Position numbers and translations under genes: made by a program
NCBI RefSeq assembly: GCF_019900845.1
Contig: NZ_CP074570.1
Span: forward strand, 1,364,001-1,428,000
DNA length: 64,000 bases
Direction of reading: 5' to 3'
From: Paraneptunicella aestuarii
GTDB taxonomy: Bacteria > Pseudomonadota > Gammaproteobacteria > Enterobacterales > Alteromonadaceae
In this document: positions 2,098 to 64,000 of the stretch, piece after piece
Numbering within the stretch: position 1 is the stretch's first letter
Layout of the letters: each line of letters begins with the position of its first letter
Notes under the pieces: generated by a model
Database searches by the model: none
What the model saw: only the letters and a program-made list of their open reading frames with translations
What the model was told of the DNA's origin: nothing

Positions 2098-5000
2098 CTA
2101 GTAGAATCCTACTGCACTTGCGTACTTAAGTACAAAAATATCCCATTCCTGATCAATTTGTGCGCTACCTGTCATGTAAAGATTGCCTATCGAATCAATC
2201 GCAATATCTCTGACTTTGTAACTCTCAGCCAGGTCATAACTTGGGAAATGGTTTAGCTGAGTCCAGTCTGATTTAAAGCGATAGAGCTCAAACCCCTTGT
2301 CTGATTGTCCTGCAATAAATATCGCTCCGAAGCTATCCACTTGCACCGCTGTAGCAGAACTATAGTTGGTGGATGAGAAGCTGGCTGCATTGATATAAGT
2401 GCCATTTATGTCATAGCGTTTCGCAATCATCTGATTATTGCTTTCACCAACGACAATAATGTTGCCTTCGGCATCAAGAGCGACATCATAAAATCCGTTA
2501 TCGATACTGTCTCCCTGACCGTAGTACAGAATGCCATCGCTATCAAAGCTGGTGTCCAGCACACCTGTTGGGTCGAACTTCACCATGAATGCATCGTACT
2601 GAGTTCCACCAAATATTTCACCGACGGCAAGGAGCTTGCCATCAGGCAATCTGGTGATGCTCATCAGTTTGGAGTCGTTCAGGAATGCCAGTTCGTAGTT
2701 CACTTCTCCGGGGGAGCTGGCGAATGAGCCTGCCAGGGTACCTGATCGATCTATTACGGCTACGTTGCCCTTGTTATTTTCAGAACCAACCAGCCAGATA
2801 TTACCCATATCATCTACGAATTGTCCGCTTACATTGTTGGTGTTTGCTGTGGCATTGACAACATAGCTGGAGGAGTTAAACGAGCCGTCCAGAGTTGTGC
2901 TATTGGGCTGTAATCGGCCTGCACTGATATCATCGTCGACTATACCTGCAACAATGGTTTTGGATTGAACGTTGATATCCAATGTTGTAAAGCGCGAAAC
3001 GATAGCGTCATCAATGATGTGAATACCTTCCCCGCCATCATAGCTGGTATCGGCAGAACCATCATGGGTGAAACGGGCGATAGCCTGATCAACATCATTA
3101 TTAACGGAGTCAAAACTGTTACCCGAGACAAGTATGCGTGAATAGTGATCCAGTTCGATATCGTAGCCGTGATCACCGAAACCAAAATCGAAGCGTAAGT
3201 TGGACTCACCATTAATGATGGTGCCGTTGCTATCCATATGTGCCAGGGCGAAGTCGTTATTGCTTTCTCCAAATACAACCAGCTTGCCACCTTCTTCAAA
3301 GGTGAAACCTTTCATATTCGTCCAGTTAATCACATCGTTTGATAAGCGCCCCTGGCCTGCATTCAGGTAGTCTTTCTTAAGTATGCCTGTGCTATCCATT
3401 TTGATGATGTAAGGAATAGTGCTGGCATCTTGCAAATGTACCCAGATATTGTTGCTGGCATCTGATTTGATTTTCGCTGATGTTGGCACTGTATAAGTGG
3501 TGAGATTATAGGTGCCGCCGTTAGCGAAGTTAGTATCCAGAGCACCTGTGCTGGTGAATTTCTGAATCCATCCACCAGAGTTATCCATCAGCACGACAAT
3601 GCTGTTGTCACTGAGTGCCGTAACGGATTTTAGGGTGATATTGGCCAGAGTCATTACTCCGCTTGTCGCGAAACTTGAATCCAGAGTTCCGGCTGCGGTG
3701 AACTTCAAGATAAGTTGGTCAGTCGAGCCATAATCTTGAGCCAATACATAGATAGAACCGTCGGCACTCATTGTCATATCAATGCCCGTAGCACCGACAT
3801 AATCAGTGATGCCTGAAGTGCCAAAGCCTGTAACCATTGCCCCTGAGTCATCAATTTTAATCAATCTGACAACGGGTGTGGCATCTGCTGTGGTGGTGGC
3901 AATCAATAGATTGTTACTGTTGTCGATGGATGTTGCGAAGGCGGTAGCCGTTTGTACCCCGTTGAAATCATCCTGAATACCATCGCTGCTGAAAGGCGAG
4001 TGGAGATTACCGGAAATATTAAACTTCAGAACTCGTAAGTCGGAATCGTTATACAGTCCCGTTACTAATAAATCCTGGGCACTGGTGGTATTAACCGCTT
4101 TAACAACAAAGGACGCGCCAGCGTTGTGCCTTAAATAACCTGTATCGGCAAATTCACTTATTGAGCCAGTGTTACTGGATAGTTTGAAGATGAGGACATC
4201 TTCGTATGACACTCCGTTCGGCACACCATAACCTACGGCATAGAATTCGCTGGGGGCGCCTTCAACCACGTCAACAATGGTGTCGTTTGTTATACTCGCT
4301 GTGTTATTTCGAACCACTCGGGCATCGCCACAAGACGTGAAACCGGGATCAGCAATATTTATTTTTTGGAAAATATTTACTTCGGTGTTGCTGGTATCGG
4401 TGTCGGCGTACATCAGCTGACCATTGCCATTTAACATCGCGCTTACTTTGGTATCACTTGCGCCATTGACTGTGACAATGAGTTCTCCACTTCCGGCAAA
4501 ACTGGAATCAAGAGTTCCATTGCTCAAGATTTTGATAATACCGATATCGTTGTCGGCTTTACCAAAGGCGTAAAGGTTGCCTTGCTCGTCGCGAATAATG
4601 TCGGTGACTTTTTCATTACTGGTGGAGGTGATGTCATGTACCAGATAGCCCTGAGCGCTGTTAAAGCCAGAGGTGTTTAAGGCTGGTGTCGTGGTGAAGC
4701 TGTATGTGCCAAACTGGTTGGCATGATCGCCCGCGACAACCAGATTACCATTGGAATCGAAGTTGATGGCATAAGCGATTTCAGTGCTGCCGCCATCGTA
4801 GGTATAAATACCGTCACTATCAAAGCCAGTATCCCATGTGCCGATTTCGCTACCATCATTGTTGGAGTCTAAATCAATACGTCCAAGTAACAGGTCATTG
4901 TCTGTTCCATTGTGGTGACTTCCTGCAATGTATAGGCGGTTTTCGTCGTCTTTGACAATGGCATGGGCAAACTGGTCATTTGCTGAGGAATAAATCAATT

Positions 5001-41008: not shown

Positions 41009-43669
41009 CTAGCTTTTAAAACAGGTCAGGGGACGAGAGAATAACTGCTGATAGCCCTGGTTTTGGCATAAGTTGTCAAACCAGGGCAGCTCAAACCATA
41101 TTTCTCCAATGCCGCCAGTGAGCGCTTCTTCGGCTTTGGGGATTGCAAAATCCGGCTCATTCAACAGCACGAAAACCAAAGCTGAAACAAACGCTACTTC
41201 GGTGTTTCCCGGGGCAAGTTTGTTTGCTTGGTTGAGGGATTTAATGGCGGCTTGTGGGTCATTCAGGTGGGCATAGGCTTGAGCCTTTTCCAAATAGGAT
41301 TTCAGGCTTTCTTTCCCTTCGTAACGCTGTATAACTTCCTGATACAAGGATTGTGCTTTGTCATTGAGTTGCAATAGATGCAGCACATCTGCAAGATTTA
41401 AATATAGCGAGGTGTTATTCGGACTTTCCTGAATGGCTTTCTCTGCAAGCTCTTTTGCGCGTTGATATTTTCTTTGTAGCATATAGGCGATTGCCAGATT
41501 GTTCATGTCGCTGCTATGTCCCCCTTGTTCGAGGATCTTTTCATAGGCAGCAATAGAGCGTTCTAGTTCACCCTGAGTCAGATACAGTGACGCGATTAAT
41601 TGGTTAGCAGCATAGTCATTGGGAAATAAAGCCAATAACTGTTCAAGACGGTTTTGAGTTTCACCAATGTTGCCAAGATACCAATGACAAAGTGCCAGAT
41701 TAAACAGGTGGGAACGATCGAATCGCAGAGAGACGAGTTGTTCAAATAATTCCCGGGCTTGTTGGTATTTTCCCTGTTTTAAGTTCAATGTTGCTCGTAA
41801 ATCTTTGATCTGATAAATGCTGGCTTGTCTGGCCTCTGATAGTGCAATGGCACTTTCTGCTGCGGTAAAATCTTGCTGATAAATGGCAATCCAGAACAAA
41901 TCCAACGCATAAAACACGCTGTTCTTATACTCTGGCGGTGCGTTGTCCAACAATGTTCGGTAATTTTCCAGATACCGTGCGTCTCTTTTGTCGTCATAGA
42001 GTGTTAGCACCAACCAGCGATAGTTCTCATAGGCTTGAAAGAGCGGAGTATCACGCGTGATAAACTGTTCAAGGCGTTTTAAGTTTGCGTCGTTGCTATT
42101 GCCTTTTATGTGGATATCGACGATCAACTCTATAAACTCCTGATAGGATTGTTCCGTGATATAAATCGGAGCCAATTGGGTCTCTGCTAATTGTGCATTG
42201 GCCTCGGGAAATATGGGAAGAAAGAAGGATTTGGCTTCTTCATACATGGCATGAGCCGAACCAAAATGGGTAAACCATTGCTTTTGTTGCACCACGCTCC
42301 AGTGCTCGGAGGTGACTCTGTCAAAGGTAATTTCACATCGGTAATCGGTGCAATTAATGGCGGTGGTAATAATATCGGTTGCAGCAACCTGTTGACCGAT
42401 TTGTTTTAAGCTTCCCGAAAGCCCATCGGTTTCATGCCTTGATATCAGGTGAATGTTCTTTATACCAAGCAGGGTTTGTCGAATGGCGTCATCAATGGTG
42501 GCGATCATAATGTCGCGTTGTTGCGGTGCTATTGTTTCTTGCTCTGTAATTTTTGGTCGTAATACCGCCACATACCTCGGATTTTCATTTGAATGAATGA
42601 ACGAAGAGGCGCGGCCTTCTTGCCATAATTGATATGAAACAAAGGCAATAAATAACAGGGCTGAGAAAATCGCCAATGCCACAAATACCTGTGTTCGAGA
42701 TAATCCCTTTGTTGGAGTATGCCCTCTCCCTTTTTTACTGTTTTTGGAACTATCTTCTGGCGATGCAGAAGGCGAATAAAGGTTTCTGTCCAGTAACTCG
42801 GTTACCTGCTCTAAAGCCTGAGCATTCATCATGTCTTGCTCTATGGTTCTGAGCTGATTAGCCACCGCCACAAAATTTACAGGGCGCTTGTTCGGCTCCG
42901 TTTTTAGACAGCTATTTAATAGGTTAATTAACGCTTTTGGCAATAGAGGAAGTATGTGTGCGGCATCGTCTGGTTTTTCATTCAAAAGATAATGAATGAA
43001 GGTTTCTCGGGTGTGTTGAGGGTAGGGGAATCGTCCCGCAAACAGATAAAATGCCAGTAGTCCAAAGGTGAAGATATCGCTTTTTACATTAAGCGGTTCC
43101 CCTTTAACCTGCTCAGGAGAAAGAGCCGTAGGGGTAGCAAAACTGGGCGAAGATTTATTTGTGCCGTTTTCTGTATCGTTATTTTTCAGAGACCGGGAAA
43201 TGCCCAAGTCGAGCACTTTGACTGTACCTTGACCTGTCACCCATATGTTTTCGGCTTTCAGATCTGCGTGCAAAATTCCTGCATCATGTATGGCTTGTAC
43301 ACCATCACAAATTTGAGTCAGAAGTCCCAGTTTCTGTTCAATGGACATCACTTGCTGGCGTTGCAGTTTTGCCAGGGTAGTCCCTTGCAGGTACTCCATT
43401 ACCAACATGACCAGATCTTTTTGATGAATAATATCGTAGATGTGGATGACGTTCGGATGGTTGATTTGAGCTAATGCTCTGGCTTCCTTAAGTGCTCTGT
43501 CTGTGTCCGACTGATTTTTCGGCTTAAGTACCTTGATGGCAACTTTCCGTTGCAATCTTTCGTCCAGAGCAAGGTATACCTTGCTGCTTCCACCTTCACC
43601 GATAACCTTCTGAATTTGGTAACCAGCAATTGACGGAGAGGAGTGAAATGGTTCAGCCGTGTTTAACAT
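41009..43669 (-). CDS. Membrane-anchored Ser/Thr protein kinase with TPR C-terminus
   Basis: 886 residues. Hanks-type kinase domain at about 15-280: Gly loop GEGGSSKVY, Lys46 in VAIKVLK, Glu62, catalytic HADLKAEN (Asp136), DLG (154-156) in place of DFG, and SPEQVKGEPLNVKSDIFTFG. The Arg before the catalytic Asp is replaced by Ala (HAD, not HRD), so activation-loop phosphorylation may not be needed. One membrane helix at about 328-348 follows a Lys/Ser-rich linker. The outer part holds a region with VAVLRPKI and TPR repeats at about 570-870. The kinase would face the cytoplasm and TPRs the periplasm. Overlaps the FHA gene by 17 bases. Confidence 0.88.
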   Translation of the reverse strand: MLNTAEPFHSSPSIAGYQIQKVIGEGGSSKVYLALDERLQRKVAIKVLKPKNQSDTDRALKEARALAQINHPNVIHIYDIIHQKDLVMLVMEYLQGTTLAKLQRQQVMSIEQKLGLLTQICDGVQAIHDAGILHADLKAENIWVTGQGTVKVLDLGISRSLKNNDTENGTNKSSPSFATPTALSPEQVKGEPLNVKSDIFTFGLLAFYLFAGRFPYPQHTRETFIHYLLNEKPDDAAHILPLLPKALINLLNSCLKTEPNKRPVNFVAVANQLRTIEQDMMNAQALEQVTELLDRNLYSPSASPEDSSKNSKKGRGHTPTKGLSRTQVFVALAIFSALLFIAFVSYQLWQEGRASSFIHSNENPRYVAVLRPKITEQETIAPQQRDIMIATIDDAIRQTLLGIKNIHLISRHETDGLSGSLKQIGQQVAATDIITTAINCTDYRCEITFDRVTSEHWSVVQQKQWFTHFGSAHAMYEEAKSFFLPIFPEANAQLAETQLAPIYITEQSYQEFIELIVDIHIKGNSNDANLKRLEQFITRDTPLFQAYENYRWLVLTLYDDKRDARYLENYRTLLDNAPPEYKNSVFYALDLFWIAIYQQDFTAAESAIALSEARQASIYQIKDLRATLNLKQGKYQQARELFEQLVSLRFDRSHLFNLALCHWYLGNIGETQNRLEQLLALFPNDYAANQLIASLYLTQGELERSIAAYEKILEQGGHSSDMNNLAIAYMLQRKYQRAKELAEKAIQESPNNTSLYLNLADVLHLLQLNDKAQSLYQEVIQRYEGKESLKSYLEKAQAYAHLNDPQAAIKSLNQANKLAPGNTEVAFVSALVFVLLNEPDFAIPKAEEALTGGIGEIWFELPWFDNLCQNQGYQQLFSRPLTCFKS

Positions 43670-51823: not shown

Positions 51824-54800
51824 TTAAGGTACAACAAATTGCGGTGCAGGTTTGGAAGGAGCCTGCACGGGTTCTGCTTCTTCAGCCATAACCTCAGGTT
51901 TGGCTTCGCGAGTTTCAGCAAATTTCATATAGAACACAGGCAACACAAACAGAGTAAATAGTGTTCCAATGATGATACCAGCCACAAGGATGATACCAAT
52001 GCTGTTACGCGCCATTGCGCCTGCTCCCGTTACCATCACCAATGGCAAGTGACCGAACACTGTCGCCGCCGTAGTCATGAGGATAGGGCGCAAACGAGTC
52101 GCAGCTGCTTCCTGAACCGCTTCAAGTTTGCTCTTACCTGCTTCTTGCAGATGATTGGCAAACTCCACGATCAGAATTCCGTTTTTGGCGACCAGGCCGA
52201 CGAGCGTGATCAAACCAATTTGTGAGTAGATGTTCATGGTTGTCAGTTCAATGAAAGACAACAACAGTGCGCCAGACATAGCCAGTGGCACGCTGCCCAG
52301 TAACACCACTAATGGGTCTCTAAAGCTATTGAATTGAACTGCTAGCAGCAAGTACATAATCAATAGTGAAATTACCAACACGCCTAACAAGCTATTACCG
52401 TCTTTGCGCAAGTCGCGAGACTCACCGGCATAGTCGATGTTGTAGTATTCCGGCAAGATGTCATGCGCCGCTTTTTCCAGTGCTGCCAAAGCGCGTTCTT
52501 TGGTTGAACCGGGTAACACACCACCGAAAATACGGAAAGCATTTTGCTGACCAAAGGTGGCAAGTTGGCGAGGAACGGTGATCCAGTCAATCGAAGCCAC
52601 GGCTGATAATGGCAACAAGGTGCCATTCGGTGCTTTGATGTTGAGCGACAAGATCTTTTCCGGATGATTGCGAATGGAATTGTCGGCAATTGGAATAACG
52701 CGATAGGCTTTACCATCTGAGTCAAAGCGATTGACGTAGTTGCTCGACAGGTAGATACCAAGCTGGCTACTCACGTCGGTAATGGTCATGCCAAGGTCGG
52801 CGATTTTGCCGCGATCCAGATTAATCTCAATTTGCGGCAAGTCGATTTTCAGGTCGGTATCGGCATACAGGAATTCGCCACTTTGGAAGGCTGCTCCTAC
52901 CAACTGGTCGGCGTATTTCTTCATGTCGGCGTGAGTATCAGAAGATTTCACAATGAATTCCACGTCGAAGTTACCTGCGGTCGGCAGCGGAGAAGGCAAC
53001 AAGGGTAACAAGTTCAATTCAGGAGTTTGAACCAATTTGCCATACACCTCCGGCAGCTTGTCCATGACACTATGATCCCGGTTGTAGGGTTTAACAAATT
53101 CCAAGCCACCGAATCCACCGTTAACATAAATGTTTTGCCACATCTGGAAAGTGCCGTCGGTTTTTAGCAACTCTTCCACGATGGGATACATGTATTTTTC
53201 GTTATACGCCAAAGACGATTCAGGCGGAGATTGAACTAACACGTTAATGAAGTTTTGGTCTTCAACCGGCGCTAATTCCTTGTCTGACTGCAAGTAGAAA
53301 GGAACAGTTAACAAACTGAATGCCAGCGCCATAAACATGATCTGCCAGCTCCAGCCAAAGGAACGCTGTAAGCCATTGGTGTAGCGGACTTGAATGGCAT
53401 AAAACACATTGTTAACCCATTTGGTTAAGCGACCTTCTCGCCCACCTTCAGGAGACACATAGGCACTCATAACCGGAGAGAGAGTAATGGCTACAACACC
53501 GGAAATAAATACGGCTAGTGCCAGAGTAAAGGCGAATTCTTTCAGTAGAGCACCGGTCAAACCTGCCAGGAAGCCAATTGGGGTGTATACCATCGACAAG
53601 GTCAATGTCATGGAAATAATAGGCACGAGTAACTGGCGACTACTTCTGAGCGCAGCTTCAATCGGTTTTGCGCCTTCACGCATGTGGCGAGACACGTTTT
53701 CAACCACGACGATGGCATCATCAACCACCAAACCTACCGACAATACAATAGCGAGAACCGTTAACAGGTTGAGCGAGAAGCCCATTACATAAATACCTGC
53801 TACCGCACCCAGAATGGAAATAGGAATAGTGACCAACGGCACTAATGCGGATTTAAATGACCCCATCATAAAGAGTACAACGACACCTACTAACAAGATG
53901 GTCTCGAACAGGGTTTTGAAGATCTCTTTTAGTGCGTCACGCATATACTGGGTGCCGTCGTAGGCGAAGTTCAGTTTTATGCCATGCTTAAGGGTTGGAT
54001 TGATTTTACCGACTACGTCATACAGTGCGTCACCGATAGCAATTTCGTTCGCCCCCGGAAGCGGCCAAACCGAAATATAAACCGTGTTATCCAAGCTGTG
54101 GCGAGCGGTCAGTGTAGGCTCTTCAAAGGCACGTTCAACGCGCGCAATATCGCGTAAATAGATGTTGTGATCATCCACGCTTTTTACGATCAGTTCTTTA
54201 AAATCGGTCGCGGTAGAAAGTTGAGTGTTGGAGACCAAATCAATACGCTGTTGCCCGGTTTCTGTGTAACCCAAGGTAGAAATCACGTTGTTGGTTTCCA
54301 GCGCTTTATACACTTCCTGAGCGCTGACATTAAAGATATTCATACGCTCAGAATCGAGCCAAACGCGCATGGCCGGAACACGACTACCTTCAATCAATGC
54401 CTTTTGAACGCCGGGAATATTGTTCAATAGTGGCGTGACCTGACGAGACAGGTAATCCGTGATATTGGGCAGTGGAATGTCCTGAGTAATCACGTTCAGA
54501 TAGAAAACCGCATGAGGGCGGTCAGCACGGCTAACCGAAATGACCGGATCTTCGGCTTCTTTCGGTAATTCAAAGCCCACTTCACTGAGCCGTGCATTTA
54601 GCTCTGCAACGGCGCGCGTGCTGTCTTCATTCAGCTTTAACCATGCTGTAACTGTGCTTAAACCCGCCTGGCTGCTGGAATCAACAAACTCAACACCCGG
54701 AACGGTAACAGCAACGCGCTCAATAGGCTCGCTGATATAGCCCTTAATGACTTCTGCCGATGCGCCGGTATAAACCGTCGTGATCACCAAAGACGAGCTT

Positions 54801-54928
54801 TCAATTTTAGGAAATTGCAGAATGGGGATGCCACGAATAGCTTGTAATCCTGAAAAGCACAGAACAATACAAATAACGATCGACAGAACTGGACGCGTAA
54901 CAAAGATGTCCATTACATTCTTTTTCAT
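51824..54928 (-). CDS. RND-family efflux pump, inner-membrane subunit
   Basis: 1034 residues, full length for AcrB/MexB-like HAE1 transporters. The N-terminus FVTRPVLSIVICIVLCFSGL, the periplasmic porter domains and twelve predicted helices are present, with the proton-relay Asp pair in helix 4 (VGLVVDDAIVVVENVSRH). It exports hydrophobic compounds in exchange for protons with a fusion protein and an outer-membrane channel. Four-base overlap with the upstream fusion-protein gene. It closes a same-strand set headed by the indigoidine synthetase, so export of pigment or intermediates is possible but not shown. Confidence 0.93.
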   Translation of the reverse strand: MKKNVMDIFVTRPVLSIVICIVLCFSGLQAIRGIPILQFPKIESSSLVITTVYTGASAEVIKGYISEPIERVAVTVPGVEFVDSSSQAGLSTVTAWLKLNEDSTRAVAELNARLSEVGFELPKEAEDPVISVSRADRPHAVFYLNVITQDIPLPNITDYLSRQVTPLLNNIPGVQKALIEGSRVPAMRVWLDSERMNIFNVSAQEVYKALETNNVISTLGYTETGQQRIDLVSNTQLSTATDFKELIVKSVDDHNIYLRDIARVERAFEEPTLTARHSLDNTVYISVWPLPGANEIAIGDALYDVVGKINPTLKHGIKLNFAYDGTQYMRDALKEIFKTLFETILLVGVVVLFMMGSFKSALVPLVTIPISILGAVAGIYVMGFSLNLLTVLAIVLSVGLVVDDAIVVVENVSRHMREGAKPIEAALRSSRQLLVPIISMTLTLSMVYTPIGFLAGLTGALLKEFAFTLALAVFISGVVAITLSPVMSAYVSPEGGREGRLTKWVNNVFYAIQVRYTNGLQRSFGWSWQIMFMALAFSLLTVPFYLQSDKELAPVEDQNFINVLVQSPPESSLAYNEKYMYPIVEELLKTDGTFQMWQNIYVNGGFGGLEFVKPYNRDHSVMDKLPEVYGKLVQTPELNLLPLLPSPLPTAGNFDVEFIVKSSDTHADMKKYADQLVGAAFQSGEFLYADTDLKIDLPQIEINLDRGKIADLGMTITDVSSQLGIYLSSNYVNRFDSDGKAYRVIPIADNSIRNHPEKILSLNIKAPNGTLLPLSAVASIDWITVPRQLATFGQQNAFRIFGGVLPGSTKERALAALEKAAHDILPEYYNIDYAGESRDLRKDGNSLLGVLVISLLIMYLLLAVQFNSFRDPLVVLLGSVPLAMSGALLLSFIELTTMNIYSQIGLITLVGLVAKNGILIVEFANHLQEAGKSKLEAVQEAAATRLRPILMTTAATVFGHLPLVMVTGAGAMARNSIGIILVAGIIIGTLFTLFVLPVFYMKFAETREAKPEVMAEEAEPVQAPSKPAPQFVVP

Positions 54929-56118
54929 CGTGACGCTCCGTGATTCGTGTCGTTTGACACCATGCTGGCCGTGACTTCTTCCTTGGCTTCAGCTTCGTTG
55001 TCTTTAACGTCGATACCGTCAAGTAACGTGCGATTGGCGATTTTCACCGTCTCTTCTTTCGGAGGGGCGACAAAGGTTTTAATGCCCGGCCAAAGCTTGA
55101 AAGAACCTTTGTTGGCAATATAGTCGCCCGGTTGCAAACCACTTAAAACAATGACGTTATCGCCAATACGCTCACCCAATTCCACAGGAACACGTTGGGC
55201 TCTAAAGTATTCACCTTCTGGCTCCAGTTTGTAGACGAAATTGCCTAAGCGATCCTTGATAATCGCCAAATTAGGAATCGCAATACGCTCTTGTGGCTCA
55301 GAAATCGGGAAGGTGACTTTCACCAGAAAGTTAGGTTTTAACGGCAACTTGTTGTTGGCGATTTTAGCGCGATAACGCAAGTGACGAGATTCACCGCGTA
55401 GCATAGGCTCCATTGATACAATGGTTGCCATCGCTGAATGACCATCATTGCCCTGGATCTCGACTCGTACTTGTGAACCAATGGGTAATTCGTCGTAAAT
55501 TTGAGGAATATCGAAGTCAATCCAGATGTAGTCACTTAAACCAATCAACTGGGTTAGCACAGTGTTGGCGGGCAAGAACTGACCTTCCTGTAAGTTATGA
55601 ATGCCTACCTGAGCGTCAAAGGGCGCGACGAAAGTACGACGTTGAACATAGGATTGGATCAATGCCGCATTCGACTCAGAATTGAGCAAATCCGCTTGTG
55701 CCTGATCAACCAATTCCTCGCTGATCTTGTCTTCTTTTAAAAGACGACGATAGCGGTTCAAGGTCTTCTTCTGCAATTCAATATTGGCTTTGGCGGCGAT
55801 TAAGCGGGCATCTTCTTCGCTGTGATCTTGCTCCAACAGCACTTGACCTTTTTTCACAATGTCGCCTGAGCGCATGTTTAACGTGTCAATTCTGCCCGGC
55901 AGTTCATTACTCAGCGTGATGGTTTTGACCGCTTGACTTTCACCATTAACAAATGAGGTTTCCTGGTATTGGATGGTCTCAACGTGAATGGCTTCAATCG
56001 TTGCAGCAGGCTCACCTGATTGAGACTGTTCGGCGTTTAACTTATTCTTGTAAGAAAAAAGCCCGGTGATGATAACTGCGATCATGGTGACGGTGATCAA
56101 CCAACGTAAATATTGCAC
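54925..56118 (-). CDS. RND efflux membrane-fusion (periplasmic adaptor) protein
   Basis: 397 residues. An N-terminal membrane helix (about 5-23) is followed by the barrel/lipoyl halves (ITLSNELPGRIDTLNMRSGDIVKKGQVLLEQD), a coiled-coil hairpin at about 110-160 (ARLIAAKANIELQKKTLNRYRRL) and a beta-barrel domain with RTFVAPFDAQVGIHNLQEGQ. This is the HlyD/AcrA-type adaptor of the pump translated next. The acidic C-terminal tail (KDNEAEAKEEVTASM) is unusual in length. No outer-membrane channel gene follows; a shared TolC-like channel is expected elsewhere. Confidence 0.92.
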   Translation of the reverse strand: MQYLRWLITVTMIAVIITGLFSYKNKLNAEQSQSGEPAATIEAIHVETIQYQETSFVNGESQAVKTITLSNELPGRIDTLNMRSGDIVKKGQVLLEQDHSEEDARLIAAKANIELQKKTLNRYRRLLKEDKISEELVDQAQADLLNSESNAALIQSYVQRRTFVAPFDAQVGIHNLQEGQFLPANTVLTQLIGLSDYIWIDFDIPQIYDELPIGSQVRVEIQGNDGHSAMATIVSMEPMLRGESRHLRYRAKIANNKLPLKPNFLVKVTFPISEPQERIAIPNLAIIKDRLGNFVYKLEPEGEYFRAQRVPVELGERIGDNVIVLSGLQPGDYIANKGSFKLWPGIKTFVAPPKEETVKIANRTLLDGIDVKDNEAEAKEEVTASMVSNDTNHGASR

Positions 56119-56233
56119 TTGTAATTCCTGTTATTCGCTGGATGGATGACTAAATTTGATTGGATAGATTAGCCATCCGGTTAACACTTCATTTCCCGAC
56201 ATTCCTTACCGCTGACGTCGGGGACTTCTCCCT

Positions 56234-57178
56234 CTATTTATTGGCGGCGACAATTTCCATATGTGCTTTGGCTAACTGAGCCCCCACTTCTGCGGTGTTG
56301 ATCAGTACAGCCATATTGGCTTTTGCTGAGCGACCTGATGTGACTTTGTCGATGGCTCGCATGATGTACTTGGTCACAGCATTACCTGCTACGCCGTCTT
56401 TCTCAGCGTTACGAATGGCTTCGTTAATGGCGTCATCCACTTCTTCACTGTTGATGGCGTCTTCTTCTTTGGTTGGGGTTGAGATTAAAAAAGAGCTGTG
56501 ATTGCCCAGTTTCCAATGGTTCTCAATCGCTTGTGCGATAACGAAAGGATTGTCCTCACGATGCGGCGCTTTAAAGCCACTGGTACGGCAATAAAACGCA
56601 GGAAAATCGTCGTATTGATAAGAAACAACCGGAACACAGTGGGTTTCCAGAAACTCCAACGTTAATCCCAAATCAAGAATGTTCTTGGCTCCGGCACAGA
56701 CCACAGCCACTTTAGAGCGCGTGAATTGCACTAAATCAGAAGAAATATCCATGGTTTGCTGCGCACCACGATGTACGCCGCCAATACCTGCCGATGAGAA
56801 AAAAGGAATGCCCGCCAGTTCGGCAGCCACAATAGAAGAGGCAACGCTGGTGGCACCTAAACCGCCACGAGCCAGAATAATAGGTAAGTCGCGGCTGCTG
56901 GTTTTCGGTACTTTTGCGGTTGTGGCGAAGCGTTCAATCATGTCATCGTCCATGCCGATGAGGAATTGTCCGTCACAAATGCCAATCGTGGCGGGGATCG
57001 CCCCGCCTCGGCGCACGGCTAATTCAACATTACGTGCGGTATTGGCGTTATCCGGGTAATCCAGCCCGTGGGAGATAACGTTCGATTCTAACGCGACGAC
57101 TGCTTGCCCAGTTGCCAACGCATCGGCGACTTCTTCTGTAAACACCAGTGGAATGCCACTTTCTGTTACGCGTTTCAT
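56234..57178 (-). CDS. indA: IndA / pseudouridine-5'-phosphate glycosidase (PsuG family)
   Basis: 314 residues, single PsuG domain. [16 protein letters not shown] (28-43) with the catalytic Glu, the Lys-bearing [10 protein letters not shown] (about 90), [17 protein letters not shown] and [20 protein letters not shown] (about 160-180, catalytic Lys) match the family. PsuG splits or forms pseudouridine-5'-phosphate. In Dickeya and other indigoidine producers this family member is called IndA and lies beside the synthetase gene, as here (95 bases downstream of the NRPS gene). Its exact part in pigment formation is not settled. No psuK kinase gene is adjacent, favouring the IndA role. Confidence 0.85.
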
Positions 57179-57240
57179 TTAATTCTCCGTTTTACTCAAG
57201 CTCATTTTTTCTGCGAATATGTGCTTGGGTGTGACTCTTT

Positions 57241-57268
57241 TAATGACTATTTGATTAATGACTATTTG
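57241..57268. repeat. 15-bp tandem duplication between indC and indA
   Basis: TAATGACTATTTG occurs at 57241-57253 and again at 57256-57268, giving a two-copy 15-base tandem repeat in the 95-base gap. It may be slippage; it could alter the spacing of a leader or promoter for indA. Confidence 0.7.
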
Positions 57269-57273
57269 TGACG

Positions 57274-60200
57274 CTATTCGCTTTCACCAATCAAGTTGTA
57301 TTCGAGTAGCTTTTGCGTCAGCTCTTCAATGCCTTCGGGCTTAAGTAGCGAGTAGTGATCGCATTCCAGATCCACAATAGTGGGTGGTCTGGCTGAGAAC
57401 TCCATGCCTGATTCAAGGAAGGAATAATCATCGCCTTGCGCTTTGAAAATGGTAATAGGCGCTTTCAACTGACGTTCCTGTAGCTCCCGGAATGTGTACT
57501 CAAACTCGTAAGTCTGGCGCACAATATTGGTGATACGGCTCACCAGATCGGAATCCAGATGCTTGAAGCGCTTGCAAATGAAATTGATAAAATCATCTTC
57601 TTTGTAAACTTCTTCCAGGCAGGCTTCCAGAATCGGCCCTTTTATGGTTTGAGCAAACACCGAGAACAAAATGGTGACAAATGCCTTGTTAGTGAACGCG
57701 GGTATCTTCGACGACATACCTTCCAGTTCGGCATGTAGCTTGGGCGAACCGGGGGCGATCAGGAACAGGCTTTCGATTTGTTCACCGGCTTGTTCCATCT
57801 GATAAGCCGTTTCAAATGCAACACGGGCTCCAAATGAATAGCCCCACAAGGTGTAAGGCCCTGAGCCTTGTTTTTCCTTGATGGCTTTGATGTCTTGCGC
57901 GGCCATTTCACTAATGGTGGCGTAAGGTTCTTCGCCGGCATTAATACCAAAAGCCTGAATGCCATAGAACGGGCGGTACATTTCCACTTCTGCTGCCAAA
58001 AAGCGCAGGTTCATTGGGTAACCACCCAAGCCAGGCCAGGCAAAAACCGGGTTCTTTTCAACCGGTGATAAGCGCAACAAACGAGAGGCTTTTTCGCTGG
58101 TTTTACCTTCCAGACGTTGTGCCAGTTTTTCAATGGTTGGTGCTTCAAACAATATCTGCATCGGCAGAGTGACATTGAACGCTGCGTTGATTTTGTTGAT
58201 CAGCGACACCGCAATTAACGAGTTACCGCCAGATTCAAAGAAGTCATCGTTAGTGGATACGCTTTCCCATTTCATAGCGGTTTTCCAGATATCAGCGATG
58301 CGTTTTTCGACATCATTTCTGGGCGATACGAAAGGGCGATCGTTTTTGGTGCTGGTGACTTCTGGCGATTCTGCCAATGCCTTGTAATCAATCTTGCCGT
58401 TTGGCGTAAGCGGTAAACGGTTCATGATCAGCACCTTGTTTGGCACCATGTAATTGGGCAACTGTTCATGCAAATCATCTTTAATGATTTCTGTTGGCCC
58501 TTTCATATGAATTGAGTCTTCTTTCATACCCAGGCTGGTGCGCTGATCATTGGTAATTCTGCCACCGATACAGAAATAAAACTGGCGCATGTCCATGTCG
58601 TGTTCAGCCAGAATGCTGCGCATACGAACAGCCGAAGGCAGATCGTTGCCTGTTTTAGAGCTGTATCCTGACGACATCGTACCGATATTGATATGGTTAG
58701 CCTGGATGTAATGCAGTTGGCGACCCAGAGAAATAAAGTCTTTCCATTCCTCGTCTTCGCGGCTCACTATGGAAATACCGAAGCTGGCTCTTTCGTAAAC
58801 CTGTTGGTTAATGGCAATGACATGCTTTTTCAAAATAAGCTCGTCGCCAAGAGGGAGCAATTTGCCGTCTTTCCAGTGGTATTGACCACCTGGCAGGTTC
58901 TCAATTTTGCCCGGATGGGATTGCACAAACAGGTCAACCTTAACCGGAAGTGCCTTGCGGCTTTGCTCACGTAGAGCAAAGCTGCCAAGGTAATAGTCTT
59001 CGTAAGCGACTTTCAGATATTGTTTTACGTTCTCATCAAAACTACCGTCGTCGATTTCGAGACCATATTTCGGCAATAGTTCGTCAAACAAGCCCAGCAT
59101 GTGGCCTGTTTCCATTTCCAATACTTCAATGATGTTATTTTTATAAACGGGTTCGATGGCACTCTTCTTACCAATAAAGTGAATCTGCAATCGAGTAATG
59201 CCCTTGGATTTGCCAGGATGAATTAACATCAACTGGTGCTCTACCGGGTGGTAATAGTAAATACCCGCTTCGAAGCCGAACATATTGTCGAGTTCTACAT
59301 ACATCTGCGTGGCGTATAGGGCACCGGGTGAGGCGTATGCATATTTGGGCAACAAACGCTCGCTACTGGTGAATTGACCGAACATGCGCATCAATTCGCC
59401 AAACTCTTCCAGCGTCAGGCTGGCAAGTGGGCGAGAGTGATTGGTATAAGGATTAAAATTCAGGACATCAATAATATCTTGCCTGGTCACATCCCCCCCA
59501 TCGTAGAAACGATAGGATTTGCGTCCAAAGGATTTCAGAATTTGAGCATCGCTGGGTTGCTTGTTAGGTAAAGAGATCGCTTTTAGCGACTCCAGTTCCG
59601 ACTCACTTCTCAAACCCGGGTTCGATAGCTGAGCTTTTACCTGAAGCTTGCTGGATTTCGATTGATGGTGAGAGCCATGATTGCCCTGATCCATCAATGC
59701 CGCTTCTTTCGGGTTTAGTTCAATACAAGCTATGAGGTTTTGAAAGCCTGTACGTGAGTCTTCCTTGATGAGCATGGCGGCGTGTTTTACCCAATCGTGA
59801 TCTTCAATGGCCAGACGAATTTCATCCAGCTCAACACGGAAGCCGCGCAATTTCACCTGGTTATCAACGCGTCCGGCAAAGTGATAGTTGCCGTAACCGT
59901 CTACGTAGGTTAAATCGCCGGTTTTATAAAGTTTCGGGCTACCATCCTGCTCTTGAAATGGATTATCAATGAAGCGTTCCGCAGTGAGATCGTCCCGGTG
60001 CAAGTAACCACGTGCAAGCTGCACACCGCCGATATAGAGCTCACCAATTTTGCCTTCAGTAACCGGGTTTAGGTCTGTATCCAGAATGTAGTATTGGGTG
60101 TCTCCAACAGGTTTACCAATTGATATCGCGGTAGGGCCTTTGCCGACAGTGTCAGGGTCAACCACGAATGTGGATGAATTGATGGTACATTCAGTCGGCC

Positions 60201-61176
60201 CATACAGGTTAATGAGCTGACAACCGGGAAGGGTTTCAAACAATAAGGATGACAAATGCTTGGTGAGTGTTTCGCCGCCGCTGAATACCTGGTTCAAACT
60301 GGTGCAATCGTGGATCCCCATGGTATCGAGCATGGCTTGAATTAATGTCGGAACGCCTTGGAAGGTCGTAACATTATTGCGAATAATGGTTTCAACCAGG
60401 GCTTCCGGATCTCGATAATCACCGGGCTTGCTGACCGTTGTTGTACCACCGAATACCGGCGACAGGATTTCCCATTGCGCGGCATCAAAACTCATTGGGG
60501 TTTTTTGTAGCACGTTGGTTTTTTCATTAAAACCAAACTCTTGTTGCATCCAGCAAAGTTGGCTGACAATGCTGTGATGTTCGATCATAACCCCTTTGGG
60601 TTTGCCTGTACTGCCAGAGGTGTAGATGACGTAGGCCAAATGATGCGGTTGAGCAATGCTTTCAACATCAATTTGGGGTTTCTTGGAAACCGCTGCGTTA
60701 AAGGAGGCAATGTCGTCCGGAGTGATGATTTTAATGCCTTCAGGAGCCAGCTTTTCAACCACTGGAGCTTGATGGTTTTCACAGAAAATAATGCTAACGC
60801 GAGAGTTTTCCAGCATGTAGCGTAAACGCTCTTCTGGGTACTCGGGTGAAAGCGGTAAATAGGCCGCGCCCGCCGTAAGAATACCCCAGGCACCGATCAT
60901 CAGTGTCATGGATGGGTCGGCAAATAATCCGACACAGTCGTCATTTTGACTTCCCAGATGGCGCAAGTATTGCGCTAACAGGATGCTTTGATCGGCAAGT
61001 TGCTGAAACGTGATCGCTTGATGATCAAACACAACAGCTGTTTTATCAGGGGTTTCTTTAACTCGTTGCCACAACAGGGCAGGCAATCCCGCAATTTGAA
61101 TGACAGGTTCTGCTTGCTGCGCAGGGTCGTTTTCGAAGCCCATAACAGGGGCACTAGTATTCACGTTAATCACCAT
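57274..61176 (-). CDS. indC: Indigoidine synthetase-type NRPS (A-Ox-A-PCP-TE)
   Basis: 1300 residues, close to BpsA/IndC. Adenylation domain with A3 YTSGSTGKPKG (185-195), A5 LYGPTEC (324-330), A7 YKTGDLTY (417-424) and A8 FAGRVDNQVKLRGFRVE (433-449). An FMN-dependent oxidase domain (about 540-890) is inserted here; A10 LTPNGKIDYKAL with catalytic Lys928 comes after it. Carrier domain with Ser986 (ESGGNSL); thioesterase with GYSFG (Ser1114) and His1274 (ECDHYS). This unusual order is diagnostic: two L-glutamines are activated, oxidised and cyclised to the blue pigment indigoidine. No condensation domain is present. Needs a phosphopantetheinyl transferase, not found here. Heads the minus-strand set with indA and the pump. 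Confidence 0.92.
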   Translation of the reverse strand: MVINVNTSAPVMGFENDPAQQAEPVIQIAGLPALLWQRVKETPDKTAVVFDHQAITFQQLADQSILLAQYLRHLGSQNDDCVGLFADPSMTLMIGAWGILTAGAAYLPLSPEYPEERLRYMLENSRVSIIFCENHQAPVVEKLAPEGIKIITPDDIASFNAAVSKKPQIDVESIAQPHHLAYVIYTSGSTGKPKGVMIEHHSIVSQLCWMQQEFGFNEKTNVLQKTPMSFDAAQWEILSPVFGGTTTVSKPGDYRDPEALVETIIRNNVTTFQGVPTLIQAMLDTMGIHDCTSLNQVFSGGETLTKHLSSLLFETLPGCQLINLYGPTECTINSSTFVVDPDTVGKGPTAISIGKPVGDTQYYILDTDLNPVTEGKIGELYIGGVQLARGYLHRDDLTAERFIDNPFQEQDGSPKLYKTGDLTYVDGYGNYHFAGRVDNQVKLRGFRVELDEIRLAIEDHDWVKHAAMLIKEDSRTGFQNLIACIELNPKEAALMDQGNHGSHHQSKSSKLQVKAQLSNPGLRSESELESLKAISLPNKQPSDAQILKSFGRKSYRFYDGGDVTRQDIIDVLNFNPYTNHSRPLASLTLEEFGELMRMFGQFTSSERLLPKYAYASPGALYATQMYVELDNMFGFEAGIYYYHPVEHQLMLIHPGKSKGITRLQIHFIGKKSAIEPVYKNNIIEVLEMETGHMLGLFDELLPKYGLEIDDGSFDENVKQYLKVAYEDYYLGSFALREQSRKALPVKVDLFVQSHPGKIENLPGGQYHWKDGKLLPLGDELILKKHVIAINQQVYERASFGISIVSREDEEWKDFISLGRQLHYIQANHINIGTMSSGYSSKTGNDLPSAVRMRSILAEHDMDMRQFYFCIGGRITNDQRTSLGMKEDSIHMKGPTEIIKDDLHEQLPNYMVPNKVLIMNRLPLTPNGKIDYKALAESPEVTSTKNDRPFVSPRNDVEKRIADIWKTAMKWESVSTNDDFFESGGNSLIAVSLINKINAAFNVTLPMQILFEAPTIEKLAQRLEGKTSEKASRLLRLSPVEKNPVFAWPGLGGYPMNLRFLAAEVEMYRPFYGIQAFGINAGEEPYATISEMAAQDIKAIKEKQGSGPYTLWGYSFGARVAFETAYQMEQAGEQIESLFLIAPGSPKLHAELEGMSSKIPAFTNKAFVTILFSVFAQTIKGPILEACLEEVYKEDDFINFICKRFKHLDSDLVSRITNIVRQTYEFEYTFRELQERQLKAPITIFKAQGDDYSFLESGMEFSARPPTIVDLECDHYSLLKPEGIEELTQKLLEYNLIGESE

Positions 61177-61206
61177 GTTTCTCAGTACTTATCTGTGTTG
61201 ATTCTT

Positions 61207-61229
61207 GAATGCCATCGTGTGCGGCATTC
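61207..61229. promoter_or_regulatory. Inverted repeat in the indC leader
   Basis: GAATGCC (61207-61213) and GGCATTC (61223-61229) with a 9-base spacer, 31-53 bases upstream of the indC start, in the divergent region shared with the MarR gene. Candidate operator or leader hairpin. Confidence 0.4.
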
Positions 61230-61377
61230 TGCTCCCTGAGAGCGAGCGCGTAGGCTGACTCTCGAACAAGTTCCAAATTCCTCAGTGACTTAGAACAGCG
61301 ACAGTAATACTTCTAAACATCGTCTTAACATAAAAAATATCCAAACAAACAATCTTTATGTGAAGATAAGTGGCGCA

Positions 61378-61386
61378 TGTTACACT
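61378..61386 (+). promoter_or_regulatory. Extended -10 of the MarR-family gene
   Basis: TGTTACACT (TG-n-TACACT) at 61378-61386; weak -35 upstream. Predicted start about 61393 lies before ATG 61447 and inside the longer frame, supporting the later start codon. Confidence 0.4.
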
Positions 61387-61446
61387 AAGCCAAGTCACTG
61401 TCAACGCTCTTTACCGCTACATAAGCCGGTGTTAGTATCCCCGCCC

Positions 61447-61935
61447 ATGAATAAAGATCACGTAGACATCGTATTAGCGCAGTGGCGTAAAGAAAGACCT
61501 GACATCAACCCGTCACCAATGGGGATTTCGGGTAGGCTTATTCGTGCGCAAAACTTCTTTTCTGGCGAAATGCAGAAAGTATTCTCCCGTTTTGGTTTAA
61601 ACCCTGGAGAATTCGATGTTCTCGCTACGTTGCTACGTTCAGGTCAGCCATACACACTGACACCTAATCAACTACTAAAAGCTTTGATGCTCTCTTCGGG
61701 TGCGATGACTAACCGTATCGATCGCTTGGAGGTTAAGGATTTGGTTGAACGTTTAGCCGATCCCAATGACCGACGTGGTGTTCGAGTCGCCTTAACCACC
61801 AAGGGTTACAAGCTGATTAGCGAAGTCATTACTCATCATGTTGAGAAATGTCGCCAAATGGCTTCCCCCTTGACCGATACAGAGCAAGAAACACTTGCTG
61901 AGTTACTTAAAAAGCTACTCAATCAATTCGAGTAA
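61447..61935 (+). CDS. MarR-family regulator, PecS-like
   Basis: 162 residues from ATG 61447. N-terminal VDIVLAQWRKERPDINPSPM and GRLIRAQNFFS, then the winged helix (LNPGEFDVLATLLRSGQPYT, LLKALMLSSGAMTNRIDRLE, DPNDRRGVRVALTTKGYKLI). The N-terminal helix and GRLxR pattern are shared with PecS, the urate-responsive repressor of indigoidine and virulence genes in Dickeya. Divergent from indC across 270 bases, which is where such a repressor would act. No clear Shine-Dalgarno; the longer frame from 61360 is rejected because it contains the promoter. Ligand and operators are inference. Confidence 0.82.
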   Translation: MNKDHVDIVLAQWRKERPDINPSPMGISGRLIRAQNFFSGEMQKVFSRFGLNPGEFDVLATLLRSGQPYTLTPNQLLKALMLSSGAMTNRIDRLEVKDLVERLADPNDRRGVRVALTTKGYKLISEVITHHVEKCRQMASPLTDTEQETLAELLKKLLNQFE

Positions 61936-61979
61936 GCTTCTTCACACCCATTCCATTTCATATTTACTGATAAAGTTAA

Positions 61980-62012
61980 CGGTCGAATAGCGCATCAAGC
62001 ACTATCCGACCG
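61980..62012. terminator. Hairpin between convergent MarR and reductase genes
   Basis: CGGTCGAATAG (61980-61990) pairs with CTATCCGACCG (62002-62012) with one mismatch. The flanks are only weakly T-rich on the minus strand (TTAACTTTAT). Plausible bidirectional terminator. Confidence 0.5.
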
Positions 62013-62043
62013 CTTCCTGGGCCGCGTTTACCTTTGCACTACG

Positions 62044-63120
62044 CTATTTTCTGCTCAGCGTTGGGTAATCGGTATAACCCTGATGATCACCACCATAGAG
62101 TGTGGCTTCATCCATTGAGTTATAGGGACCACCTTGCTTAATTCGTTCAATTAAATCCGGGTTTGCCAGGAAGAGTGCGCCCAACGCCACTGCGTCAGCC
62201 TCGTTATTTTCCAAAACTGCTTCGGCAATATCCGGTTTAACAAATCCATCATCCGGCGATTTATGTGGATTTAGAATAAAGGTTCCTCGCCATGCATCAC
62301 GCACCGCTAATGATTGCCCGCGATTACCCGCTTCCATAATGTGGACATAAGCCAGATTTGTCGGCAGTTGATCAATCAAGGTGCGATACAAGGTTTTCGC
62401 TTCTGTTTCGACCATGTCGTTGTATGGGTTTTCAGGCGAAATACGGATAGCGGTTTTCTCTGCGCCAATCGCTGCAACAACGGCGTTAACGACTTCCACC
62501 ACGAAACGAACGCGATTTTCAAATGAACCGCCATATTCGTCGCTACGCTTGTTGGTGTTGTCAGCCATAAACTGATGCAATAAGAAGCCGTTACCTGCGT
62601 GTAATTCAACTCCATCAAAGCCTGCGGCAATGGCGTTTTTACAGGCAGAGACAAAGTCCTGCACGGTGTCTTTGATGTCTTCCAGTGTCATTTCGCGTGG
62701 TACTGGATAGTCAGCCAGACCATTTGGCGTAAAGGTTTGACCTTTAGCTGCAATCGCAGATGGTGCGATTGACTGGTGAGCGCTAGGGTAAAGGCTTGGA
62801 TGACCAATACGGCCACTGTGCATGACCTGAGCGAAAATGTGTCCACCTGCGTTATGTACGGCTTCTGTGACCTGTTTCCAGGATTCGGTTTGCTCTGCTG
62901 TGTGCAAACCTGGGGTATTCATGAAGCCCTGACCGACAACACTAGGTTGAATGCCTTCAGATATAATCAGACCCGCACTGGCGCGTTGAGCATAATACTC
63001 GGCCATTAATGCCGTGGCGCAGCCTTCTGTGGTTGCACGGTTACGAGTCATTGGAGCCATAACCAGCTTGTTTGACAACTGAATGTTGCCAAGTTTTAGT
63101 GGCTCGAAAATCTTCTTCAT
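62044..63120 (-). CDS. Old yellow enzyme-family alkene reductase
   Basis: 358 residues, FMN-dependent TIM barrel like NemA. FEPLKLGNIQLSNKLVMAPM and TRNRATTEGCAT at the start, QVMHSGRIGHPS near 98, the active-site HAGNGFLLHQFM (His and Asn about 175-180) and DEYGGSFENRVRF are all typical. It reduces activated C=C bonds or nitro groups with NAD(P)H. Its start overlaps the transporter stop (ATGA), so the two form an operon convergent with the MarR gene. A role in indigoidine chemistry (reduction to the colourless leuco form) is only a speculation; detoxification is equally likely. Confidence 0.93.
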   Translation of the reverse strand: MKKIFEPLKLGNIQLSNKLVMAPMTRNRATTEGCATALMAEYYAQRASAGLIISEGIQPSVVGQGFMNTPGLHTAEQTESWKQVTEAVHNAGGHIFAQVMHSGRIGHPSLYPSAHQSIAPSAIAAKGQTFTPNGLADYPVPREMTLEDIKDTVQDFVSACKNAIAAGFDGVELHAGNGFLLHQFMADNTNKRSDEYGGSFENRVRFVVEVVNAVVAAIGAEKTAIRISPENPYNDMVETEAKTLYRTLIDQLPTNLAYVHIMEAGNRGQSLAVRDAWRGTFILNPHKSPDDGFVKPDIAEAVLENNEADAVALGALFLANPDLIERIKQGGPYNSMDEATLYGGDHQGYTDYPTLSRK

Positions 63121-64000
63121 CTTGTGTTTCCTTTTAATGGAGTCAATTGAGGACTTTGAGGTGTTGCTTTAGCGGCTCTGGGCTGAGCCAGAAAAATCGC
63201 AGCAAGAATGGCAACCGCGCCAACCAGCTGCATCCCGGTCAGGCTTTGATTCAGGATCAGGTAACCCAAAATCGTGGCTGACAACGGACTGGAAAATGAG
63301 ATAAGCGACACGCTGACGGCTGGAATACGCTCAACGCCTCTGAACCAGATCACATAGGCAAACAACGAGCCCACCAAACACAGGAAAGTAAAACCGATGA
63401 TGTTGTTGCTGGTGATGGTTTCCGGTAAGCCTTCTGTCATTAGGGCGATAGGTAATAACACCGCGCCACCCACAGTCAGTTGCCATCCGGTAAAGGTCAG
63501 CAGATTAACACCCTGAGGGCGTCCCCAGCGTTTGGTCATAACAATACCGGATGCCATACAGGAAGCGCCTGCAAGCCCAGCGAAAACACCAATGGCATCA
63601 AGTTGCGCGCTGGGTTTTAACACCAGTAAGGCAACGCCGATAGCGCCGACAAAACAGGCAATAACTTGGTATTGGGTGACTTTTTCTTTGAGCAGGAATG
63701 AACCCAGTAACATAACAATAAGAGGCTGACTCGACATAATGAGCGCAGCGACGCCGCCAGGAAGATGATAGGCGGCAAGGAAAACGAAATAGAAGAATGC
63801 TCCGATGTTCAATACACCGAGCACAAAGGCTTTCCACCACCAGGCTCCCTGTGGTAGACGTTGGCCGATAAGCATAAGAATAATCCCGGCTGGCAAAGCG
63901 CGCACAACCGACGCGAGCACAGGTGAGTCGGGGGGCAGCAATTCGGTTGTCACCAAATAGGTGCTTCCCCAAATTGCTGGTGCAAGCGCTGCCAGTAAAT
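63117..64000 (-). CDS. EamA/DMT-family transporter, PecM-like (5' end beyond window)
   Basis: The frame stays open to the right edge (LLAALAPAIWGSTYLVTTELL before the first internal start), so the true start lies beyond 64000; at least 293 residues are present. About nine to ten membrane helices and two EamA halves are visible, with APAIWGSTY, VRALPAGIILM, PGGVAALIMSSQPL and LISFSSPLSATILGYLIL. PecM of Dickeya, the inner-membrane indigoidine pump paired with PecS, belongs to this family. Four-base overlap with the reductase gene. The PecM role is inferred from context; many EamA proteins export other metabolites. Confidence 0.85.
   Translation of the reverse strand, partial: LLAALAPAIWGSTYLVTTELLPPDSPVLASVVRALPAGIILMLIGQRLPQGAWWWKAFVLGVLNIGAFFYFVFLAAYHLPGGVAALIMSSQPLIVMLLGSFLLKEKVTQYQVIACFVGAIGVALLVLKPSAQLDAIGVFAGLAGASCMASGIVMTKRWGRPQGVNLLTFTGWQLTVGGAVLLPIALMTEGLPETITSNNIIGFTFLCLVGSLFAYVIWFRGVERIPAVSVSLISFSSPLSATILGYLILNQSLTGMQLVGAVAILAAIFLAQPRAAKATPQSPQLTPLKGNTR

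What the first reader, a model, noticed from the sequence alone, without database searches (positions are those of the whole stretch)
51824..64000. Predicted indigoidine locus with built-in regulator and exporters
The 1300-residue NRPS has an oxidase domain inserted between A8 and A10 plus PCP and TE domains, the pattern known from indigoidine synthetases. An IndA-type glycosidase follows. A PecS-like MarR gene is divergent, and a PecM-family transporter lies close by. The added RND pump pair and alkene reductase are not part of the classic Dickeya set, so this may be a distinct marine version of the locus.
Basis: partly seen in the sequence, partly recalled or inferred. Interest (0 to 1): 0.85.

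Follow-up and report, generated by a model that had tools for sequence, protein, structure and literature searches.

The report
Blue-pigment gene cluster with nucleotide genes
A bacterium carries a blue-pigment-type enzyme inside a conserved gene set, shared with soil Streptomyces, whose other members handle ribose phosphates, which suggests that the product may be a sugar-linked, nucleoside-like compound rather than only the pigment indigoidine.

Summary
Window 57274-61176(-) encodes an A-Ox-T-TE synthetase of the BpsA/IndC family, followed by IndA and an RND pair, with a divergent PecS-type regulator, an alkene reductase (OYE) and an EamA transporter beside it. Two results change the reading. 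(1) The locus runs past the window into a second-copy uracil phosphoribosyltransferase (UPRT) and a TrpF-like protein without TrpF's catalytic Cys. The TrpF-like gene occurs in 4 of 118 family genomes, the same four that hold a full-length synthetase, and in 6 of 199 genomes of a Streptomyces sample, each time near a synthetase. (2) Among 46 synthetase loci IndA and UPRT go together (13 both, 1 IndA only, 0 UPRT only, 32 neither), accompanied by TrpF-like or by minimycin-type HAD+PF14027, never both. I infer a C-nucleotide pathway branching from indigoidine chemistry, with UPRT as self-protection as described for minimycin MinD. One palindrome precedes both half-operons in all four gammaproteobacterial genomes. 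The product is unproven. Part of the gene set is in print (Corynebacterium pET44827); I did not find the C-nucleotide reading or the two-cassette pattern.

The parts
51824..54928 (-). RND efflux permease (1034 aa), last gene of the indC operon
   Evidence: ACR_tran 770 bits; beside IndA in the 4 loci of this family
54925..56118 (-). RND periplasmic adaptor (MFP), overlaps the permease gene by 4 bases
   Evidence: TIGR01730 180.9 bits, over its cut-off; overlap
56234..57178 (-). IndA, pseudouridine-5'-phosphate glycosidase family; proposed C-ribosylating enzyme
   Evidence: PF04227 362.8 bits; E. coli-type pseudouridine-5'-phosphate glycosidase structures E 1.6e-75, and the residues I recall as catalytic are kept in the alignment
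57274..61176 (-). Indigoidine-type synthetase A-Ox-T-TE, 1300 aa, no fused tautomerase domain
   Evidence: no PF01361 match, whereas P0021, P0032 and P0049 have one
61352..61367 (.). Palindrome ATCTTTATGTGAAGAT in the divergent pecS-indC region, proposed PecS operator; a 2-mismatch copy lies 55 bases upstream of the TrpF-like gene (L003:15512)
   Evidence: binding not tested
61447..61935 (+). PecS-type MarR regulator (open frame from GTG 61360)
   Evidence: PF12802/PF01047; best PDB chains 8ylf and 8ylh; alignment with relatives
62044..63120 (-). Alkene reductase, Old Yellow Enzyme family
   Evidence: PF00724 278.3 bits
63117..64000 (-). EamA (PecM-like) transporter, open frame continuing to 64076; upstream of it, beyond the window, UPRT (L003:14018-14686, = 64018-64686 counted on) and TrpF-like (L003:14780-15457, = 64780-65457 counted on), same strand
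   Evidence: EamA 142.3 bits, UPRTase 254.1 bits, PRAI 78.6 bits; order and gaps

Best explanation
A PecS-controlled biosynthetic locus in which the indigoidine-type synthetase supplies an aminopyridinedione-type ring made from L-glutamine and IndA joins that ring to ribose 5-phosphate by a C-C bond, giving a C-nucleotide. The TrpF-like protein and the alkene reductase tailor it, in place of the HAD phosphatase and PF14027 enzyme of the minimycin pathway. The UPRT shields the producer by enlarging the UMP pool, the role described for MinD. EamA exports across the inner membrane and the adaptor-RND pair carries the product out of the cell. Ring not captured by IndA would couple spontaneously to indigoidine. 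PecS represses both half-operons through a shared palindrome. Shown here: gene content, conservation, co-occurrence, palindrome. Inferred: every catalytic step, the transporters' substrates and binding by the regulator.
For: Full-length synthetase in 4 of 118 family genomes and TrpF-like in the same 4; in the order sample TrpF-like in 3 of 394, all among the 8 with the Ox domain. In a Streptomyces sample TrpF-like in 6 of 199, all among the 29 with the Ox domain and 2.9-6.9 kb from it, with UPRT and IndA in 6 of 6, EamA in 5 and OYE in 4. IndA and UPRT pair across 46 loci (13/1/0/32; independent-pairs sign test median p 0.016). Minimycin precedent for ring capture by an IndA homologue and for protection by a UPRT (PMC8724604, passages). 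PRPP synthetase in 4 of 11 TrpF-type loci and on pSA3239. The palindrome precedes indC and the TrpF-like gene in 4 of 4 genomes.
Against: No chemistry. Family synthetases make indigoidine without these genes: S. lavendulae and Melittangium BpsA in E. coli (PMC12766979, passages). The window locus has no tautomerase gene, whereas the minimycin route uses one; the nearest candidate found lies beside the second synthetase (L026:16359-16589). No phosphatase lies in the locus. OYE is missing from 3 of 11 TrpF-type loci and EamA from 1. No outer-membrane partner gene was seen beside the RND pair. The C. aurimucosum locus is linked to a black pigment, not a nucleoside (PMC2830990, passages).
Confidence: 0.5

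Rival explanations
1. A plain indigoidine locus. The blue pigment is the product, IndA is a helper, EamA and RND export pigment, and UPRT, TrpF-like and OYE are accessory metabolic or stress genes.
For: Synthetase domains and pocket are those of the indigoidine family. PecM of Dickeya is reported to export indigoidine (PMC12288460, passage). Synthetases of related loci make indigoidine when expressed alone (PMC12766979, passages).
Against: 32 of 46 synthetase loci have neither IndA nor UPRT in the stretch read, so neither seems needed for pigment, yet the two occur together. The TrpF-like gene was found only in genomes with a synthetase in each sample.
Confidence: 0.36
2. The locus makes minimycin (oxazinomycin) itself by another set of late enzymes.
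For: IndC, IndA, UPRT and a transporter correspond to MinA, MinB, MinD and MinT (PMC8724604, passages).
Against: PF14027 was not found in the genome (the 14 control genomes were silent too, but the model does hit the Serratia and Erwinia proteins); no HAD gene and no tautomerase in the locus. TrpF-like and PF14027 were in no locus together (0 of 46).
Confidence: 0.09
3. Two unrelated neighbouring loci: a pigment operon with its RND pair, and a separate TrpF-UPRT-EamA-OYE operon.
For: In P. luteoviolacea B (G064) the halves lie on two contigs. On an Agrobacterium vitis plasmid TrpF-like, UPRT and an EamA match have no synthetase within 10 kb.
Against: Joint presence in 4 of 118 genomes and joint absence elsewhere. 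In G064 both contigs end at the cluster, beside genes (mnmE-like; mioC- and mnmG-like, named by recall) that commonly lie near one another, so adjacency is likely though not shown. The same palindrome precedes both halves in 4 of 4 genomes. Streptomyces mixes the genes in other orders.
Confidence: 0.05

Closest known systems
Streptomyces lavendulae plasmid pSA3239 locus (NC_024970.2; that it is the strain and BGC called S. aureofaciens CCM 3239 indigoidine is recalled)
   Same: TrpF-like (79% identical to the window's), upp, EamA, IndA, alkene reductase and synthetase (57%) in one locus
   Different: Has a separate tautomerase and a PRPP synthetase; no RND pair or PecS-type gene in the stretch read
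Corynebacterium aurimucosum plasmid pET44827 black-pigment locus
   Same: PecS-type gene divergent from TrpF-like, upp, synthetase, IndA, EamA
   Different: TrpF-like 55% and synthetase 36% identical; tautomerase present; no alkene reductase or RND detected in the stretch read
Minimycin (min) cluster of S. hygroscopicus (from a review; the original paper was not held)
   Same: Gln-activating A-Ox-T-TE synthetase, IndA-type C-glycosynthase, UPRT, transporter (PMC8724604, passages)
   Different: Window locus lacks MinC (HAD + DUF4243) and the Tau domain; it has TrpF-like, OYE and RND instead
Dickeya ind/pec loci (recalled; Dickeya sequences not fetched)
   Same: IndA, IndC, PecS- and PecM-type genes
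   Different: IndB-type HAD absent from this locus; UPRT, TrpF-like, OYE and RND present

Membership tests
Indigoidine synthetase (IndC/BpsA) | A-Ox-T-TE architecture with the Ox domain inside A | tested here: met
   the Ox match is under the model's curated cut-off
Indigoidine synthetase (IndC/BpsA) | Gln-type pocket as in family members | tested here: met
   DAWQFGLINK in 116 of 129 including the window; S. lavendulae P0066 DAWQFGVINK; that this code means Gln is recalled
Indigoidine synthetase (IndC/BpsA) | Makes indigoidine | not testable with these tools
   needs expression
Minimycin-type C-nucleoside cluster | IndA/MinB-type C-glycosynthase beside the synthetase | tested here: met
   PF04227 362.8 bits
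Minimycin-type C-nucleoside cluster | UPRT (MinD) | tested here: met
   UPRTase 254.1 bits, second copy in the genome
Minimycin-type C-nucleoside cluster | MinC: HAD phosphatase + DUF4243/PF14027 | tested here: not met
   no HAD in the locus; PF14027 not found in the genome (controls silent; model works proteins)
Minimycin-type C-nucleoside cluster | Tautomerase domain or gene | tested here: not met
   none in L003 with a tautomerase profile; found beside the second synthetase
Phosphoribosylanthranilate isomerase (TrpF) | Catalytic Cys and anthranilate-binding Arg (roles recalled) | tested here: not met
   Ala8 in 100% and Asp38 in 96% of 123 TrpF-like proteins, at T. maritima Cys7 and Arg36. 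The catalytic Asp is uncertain: the printed alignment pairs it with D139 (67%), while nearby D136 is invariant
PecS | MarR protein with the PecS N-terminal extension, divergent from its target | tested here: inconclusive
   MarR domain and shared N-terminal stretch in 7 aligned relatives, divergent from indC; no direct comparison with Dickeya PecS, best PDB hits carry general names

The most novel reading that the evidence does not exclude
A second, widespread branch of indigoidine chemistry: a mobile TrpF-like/UPRT/EamA (often OYE, sometimes PRPP synthetase) cassette around synthetase and IndA, found in gammaproteobacteria, Streptomyces and Corynebacterium, makes an undescribed C-nucleoside. 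The TrpF-like protein is a repurposed sugar-phosphate isomerase with a new reaction, and in the Gram-negative family the compound leaves through a dedicated RND pump.
Probability: 0.42. Interest if true: 0.8.

Novelty: new variant of a known kind. Interest (0 to 1): 0.62.

Why it matters
If right, loci now labelled indigoidine are split by a simple rule (IndA plus UPRT, with one of two tailoring cassettes) into pigment-only loci and C-nucleoside loci. It names a concrete unknown enzyme (a TrpF-like protein without its catalytic Cys) and gives a testable product prediction for gammaproteobacteria and Streptomyces. C-nucleosides are a small group of antibiotics, and the unexplained black pigment locus of C. 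aurimucosum would belong to the same class.

Tried and rejected
Idea that the TrpF-like protein replaces the tautomerase: rejected, 8 of 11 TrpF-type loci also have a tautomerase.

Idea that the two synthetases of the genome are a recent duplication: rejected, 54% identical and not sisters in the tree.

Idea that TrpF-type synthetases form one lineage: rejected, the label needs 7 changes, at least 6 forced by supported branches (a quick tree; the Corynebacterium row is on a long branch and its place is unsure).

The first genome-contig scan with the single protein found nothing.

One search (TrpF-like in the genomes of L045, L036, L037, L053) found nothing in 4 of 4; the S. netropsis genome has a synthetase without it.

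Literature: TrpF-like name with C-nucleoside, 0 papers; with indigoidine, 1 paper, PMC2830990; RND and efflux with indigoidine, 6 listed, of which I opened only PMC12288460.
Full report
OBSERVATION. On the minus strand, in order of transcription: synthetase (57274-61176), IndA (56234-57178), RND adaptor (54925-56118), RND permease (51824-54928). The PecS-type MarR gene is divergent; an alkene reductase (62044-63120) and an EamA transporter (from 63117) lie beyond it. The insert of the synthetase matches the SagB-type oxidase model TIGR03605 at 2.3e-10 (40.2 bits, under the curated cut-off) and the NRPS oxidase BmdC weakly. The pocket DAWQFGLINK is shared by 116 of 129 aligned family members and the other 13 differ at one position. 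A Sfp-type PPTase is in the genome.

BEYOND THE WINDOW. The EamA operon continues upstream past base 64000 into a uracil phosphoribosyltransferase and a TrpF-like protein. Both are second copies: the genome has another UPRT and another TrpF. The TrpF-like protein keeps C-terminal motifs of the family but has Ala where T. maritima TrpF has Cys7 (100% of 123 TrpF-like proteins, the best of 1811 hits plus two plasmid copies, the window's own counted twice) and Asp in place of Arg36 (96%) (the roles of these residues are recalled). It is therefore unlikely to be a normal isomerase, although its own invariant residues show that it is under selection.

WHO HAS IT. The TrpF-like gene is in the same 4 and no other. 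Congeners of three of them in the sample lack both (G044; G018 and G097; G045 and G110). Contig lengths identify G022 as Flocculibacter collagenilyticus, G064 as Pseudoalteromonas luteoviolacea B and G082 as Rheinheimera sp. 4Y26. In the order sample of 394 genomes the Ox domain is in 8 and the TrpF-like gene in 3, all among the 8. In 199 genomes of the genus of Streptomyces netropsis the Ox domain is in 29 and the TrpF-like gene in 6; all 6 are among the 29, with 2.9-6.9 kb between the two matches. Their neighbourhoods carry the same genes in other orders: IndA and UPRT in 6 of 6, EamA in 5, OYE in 4, PRPP synthetase in 4, PecS-type in 3, RND in 0. Named plasmids show the set with public annotation: pSA3239 (TrpF-like, upp, EamA, tautomerase, IndA, alkene reductase, PRPP synthetase, synthetase) and C. 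aurimucosum pET44827. Three Agrobacterium vitis plasmids carry the TrpF-like gene; in the one read there is upp next to it and no synthetase within 10 kb.

THE CO-OCCURRENCE PATTERN. I tabulated 46 synthetase loci, 32 of them from the Streptomyces sample. IndA and UPRT: both 13, IndA only 1 (Erwinia), UPRT only 0, neither 32. In the 32 Streptomyces loci: 7, 0, 0, 25 (Fisher p 3e-7). On the synthetase tree about 6.8 of 7 independent pairs go the same way (sign test median p 0.016). TrpF-like is in 11 loci, each with IndA and UPRT; PF14027 is in 3 (Serratia, Erwinia, one Streptomyces), each with IndA and HAD; no locus has both. For TrpF-like with UPRT the pair test is weaker (median p 0.031), and for TrpF-like with IndA (0.0625) and with OYE (0.125) it does not reach 0.05. 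Caveats: C. aurimucosum was found through its TrpF-like gene, so it is not an independent case; the 14 non-Streptomyces loci are not a random sample; for P. luteoviolacea two contigs were pooled; several loci end at contig edges; shared descent inflates the Fisher values. TrpF-type loci are not one clade in the synthetase tree, so the cassette has been gained or lost several times.

REGULATION. The pecS-indC regions of the four gammaproteobacterial loci share a palindrome, ATCTTYAYRTRAAGAT. The pattern was read off the indC sites and the window genome's TrpF-like site, so those are not independent tests. Copies with up to 2 mismatches also precede the TrpF-like gene in the other three genomes, stand between IndA and the adaptor gene in P. 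luteoviolacea and Rheinheimera, and lie between the second synthetase and its EamA gene in the window's genome. Chance expectation was 0-0.33 per stretch (6 random sequences each). Hits that fit no promoter were seen too: window 30046 and L027:3963, both inside coding sequence. Binding by PecS is inferred.

MECHANISM. The family synthetase loads Gln, cyclises it and oxidises it (IdgS, PMC10989907, passages). In minimycin biosynthesis the ring is captured by MinB, an IndA-type enzyme, and the cell is protected by MinCN, MinD (UPRT) and MinT (PMC8724604, passages). The pairing of UPRT with IndA across the 46 loci is what that model predicts, and I take it as the main support for a C-nucleotide here. 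The window locus lacks the MinC functions: no HAD gene in the locus, and PF14027 not found in the genome (where the control genomes were silent; the model does hit the Serratia and Erwinia proteins). TrpF-like and OYE would then set the final structure. The RND pair is in the 4 loci of this family and absent from the other 42 of 46; it fits as an envelope-crossing exporter, but its substrate is unknown and no outer-membrane gene was seen beside it.

KNOWN OR NEW. Synthetase and IndA are ordinary members of known families. A phosphoribosyltransferase, a TrpF-like and a PecS-like gene beside such a synthetase were described for C. aurimucosum, where they were thought to activate the synthetase (PMC2830990, passages). 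Fused and separate tautomerases were discussed for Myxococcota (PMC12766979, passages), and other marine loci (Leisingera igi) have different accessory genes (PMC5014874, passages). I did not find the UPRT-IndA pairing, the two alternative cassettes, the loss of the TrpF Cys, the RND-bearing form or its palindrome in the library; most subscription papers are not held, and the original minimycin paper was not readable here. I rate it a new variant of a known kind.

Noticed in passing
L026:9989-16589 (same genome, C1 about 4.08 Mb): A second indigoidine-type synthetase (54% identical) with its own EamA, HAD phosphatase and tautomerase genes and a 2-mismatch copy of the palindrome; not a sister of the window's synthetase.
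   Followed up: partly
L036 and L037: Serratia quinivorans and an uncultured Erwinia carry minimycin-type sets (synthetase, IndA, HAD, PF14027, tautomerase; UPRT in Serratia), a possible source of C-nucleosides in enterobacteria.
   Followed up: partly
L193: An Agrobacterium vitis plasmid has TrpF-like, UPRT, tautomerase and EamA/OYE matches with a transposase gene among them and no synthetase nearby, perhaps a decayed cluster.
   Followed up: no
window 41009-43669 (-): A protein kinase domain followed by TPR repeats, 886 residues.
   Followed up: no
window 2098-9138 (-): A 2346-residue protein of cadherin-like and bacterial Ig-like repeats, probably a large surface or secreted protein.
   Followed up: no
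L027:7832-8917 (+): A 361-residue protein with no Pfam or NCBIfam match sits between the alkene reductase and pecS only in Flocculibacter among the four loci.
   Followed up: no
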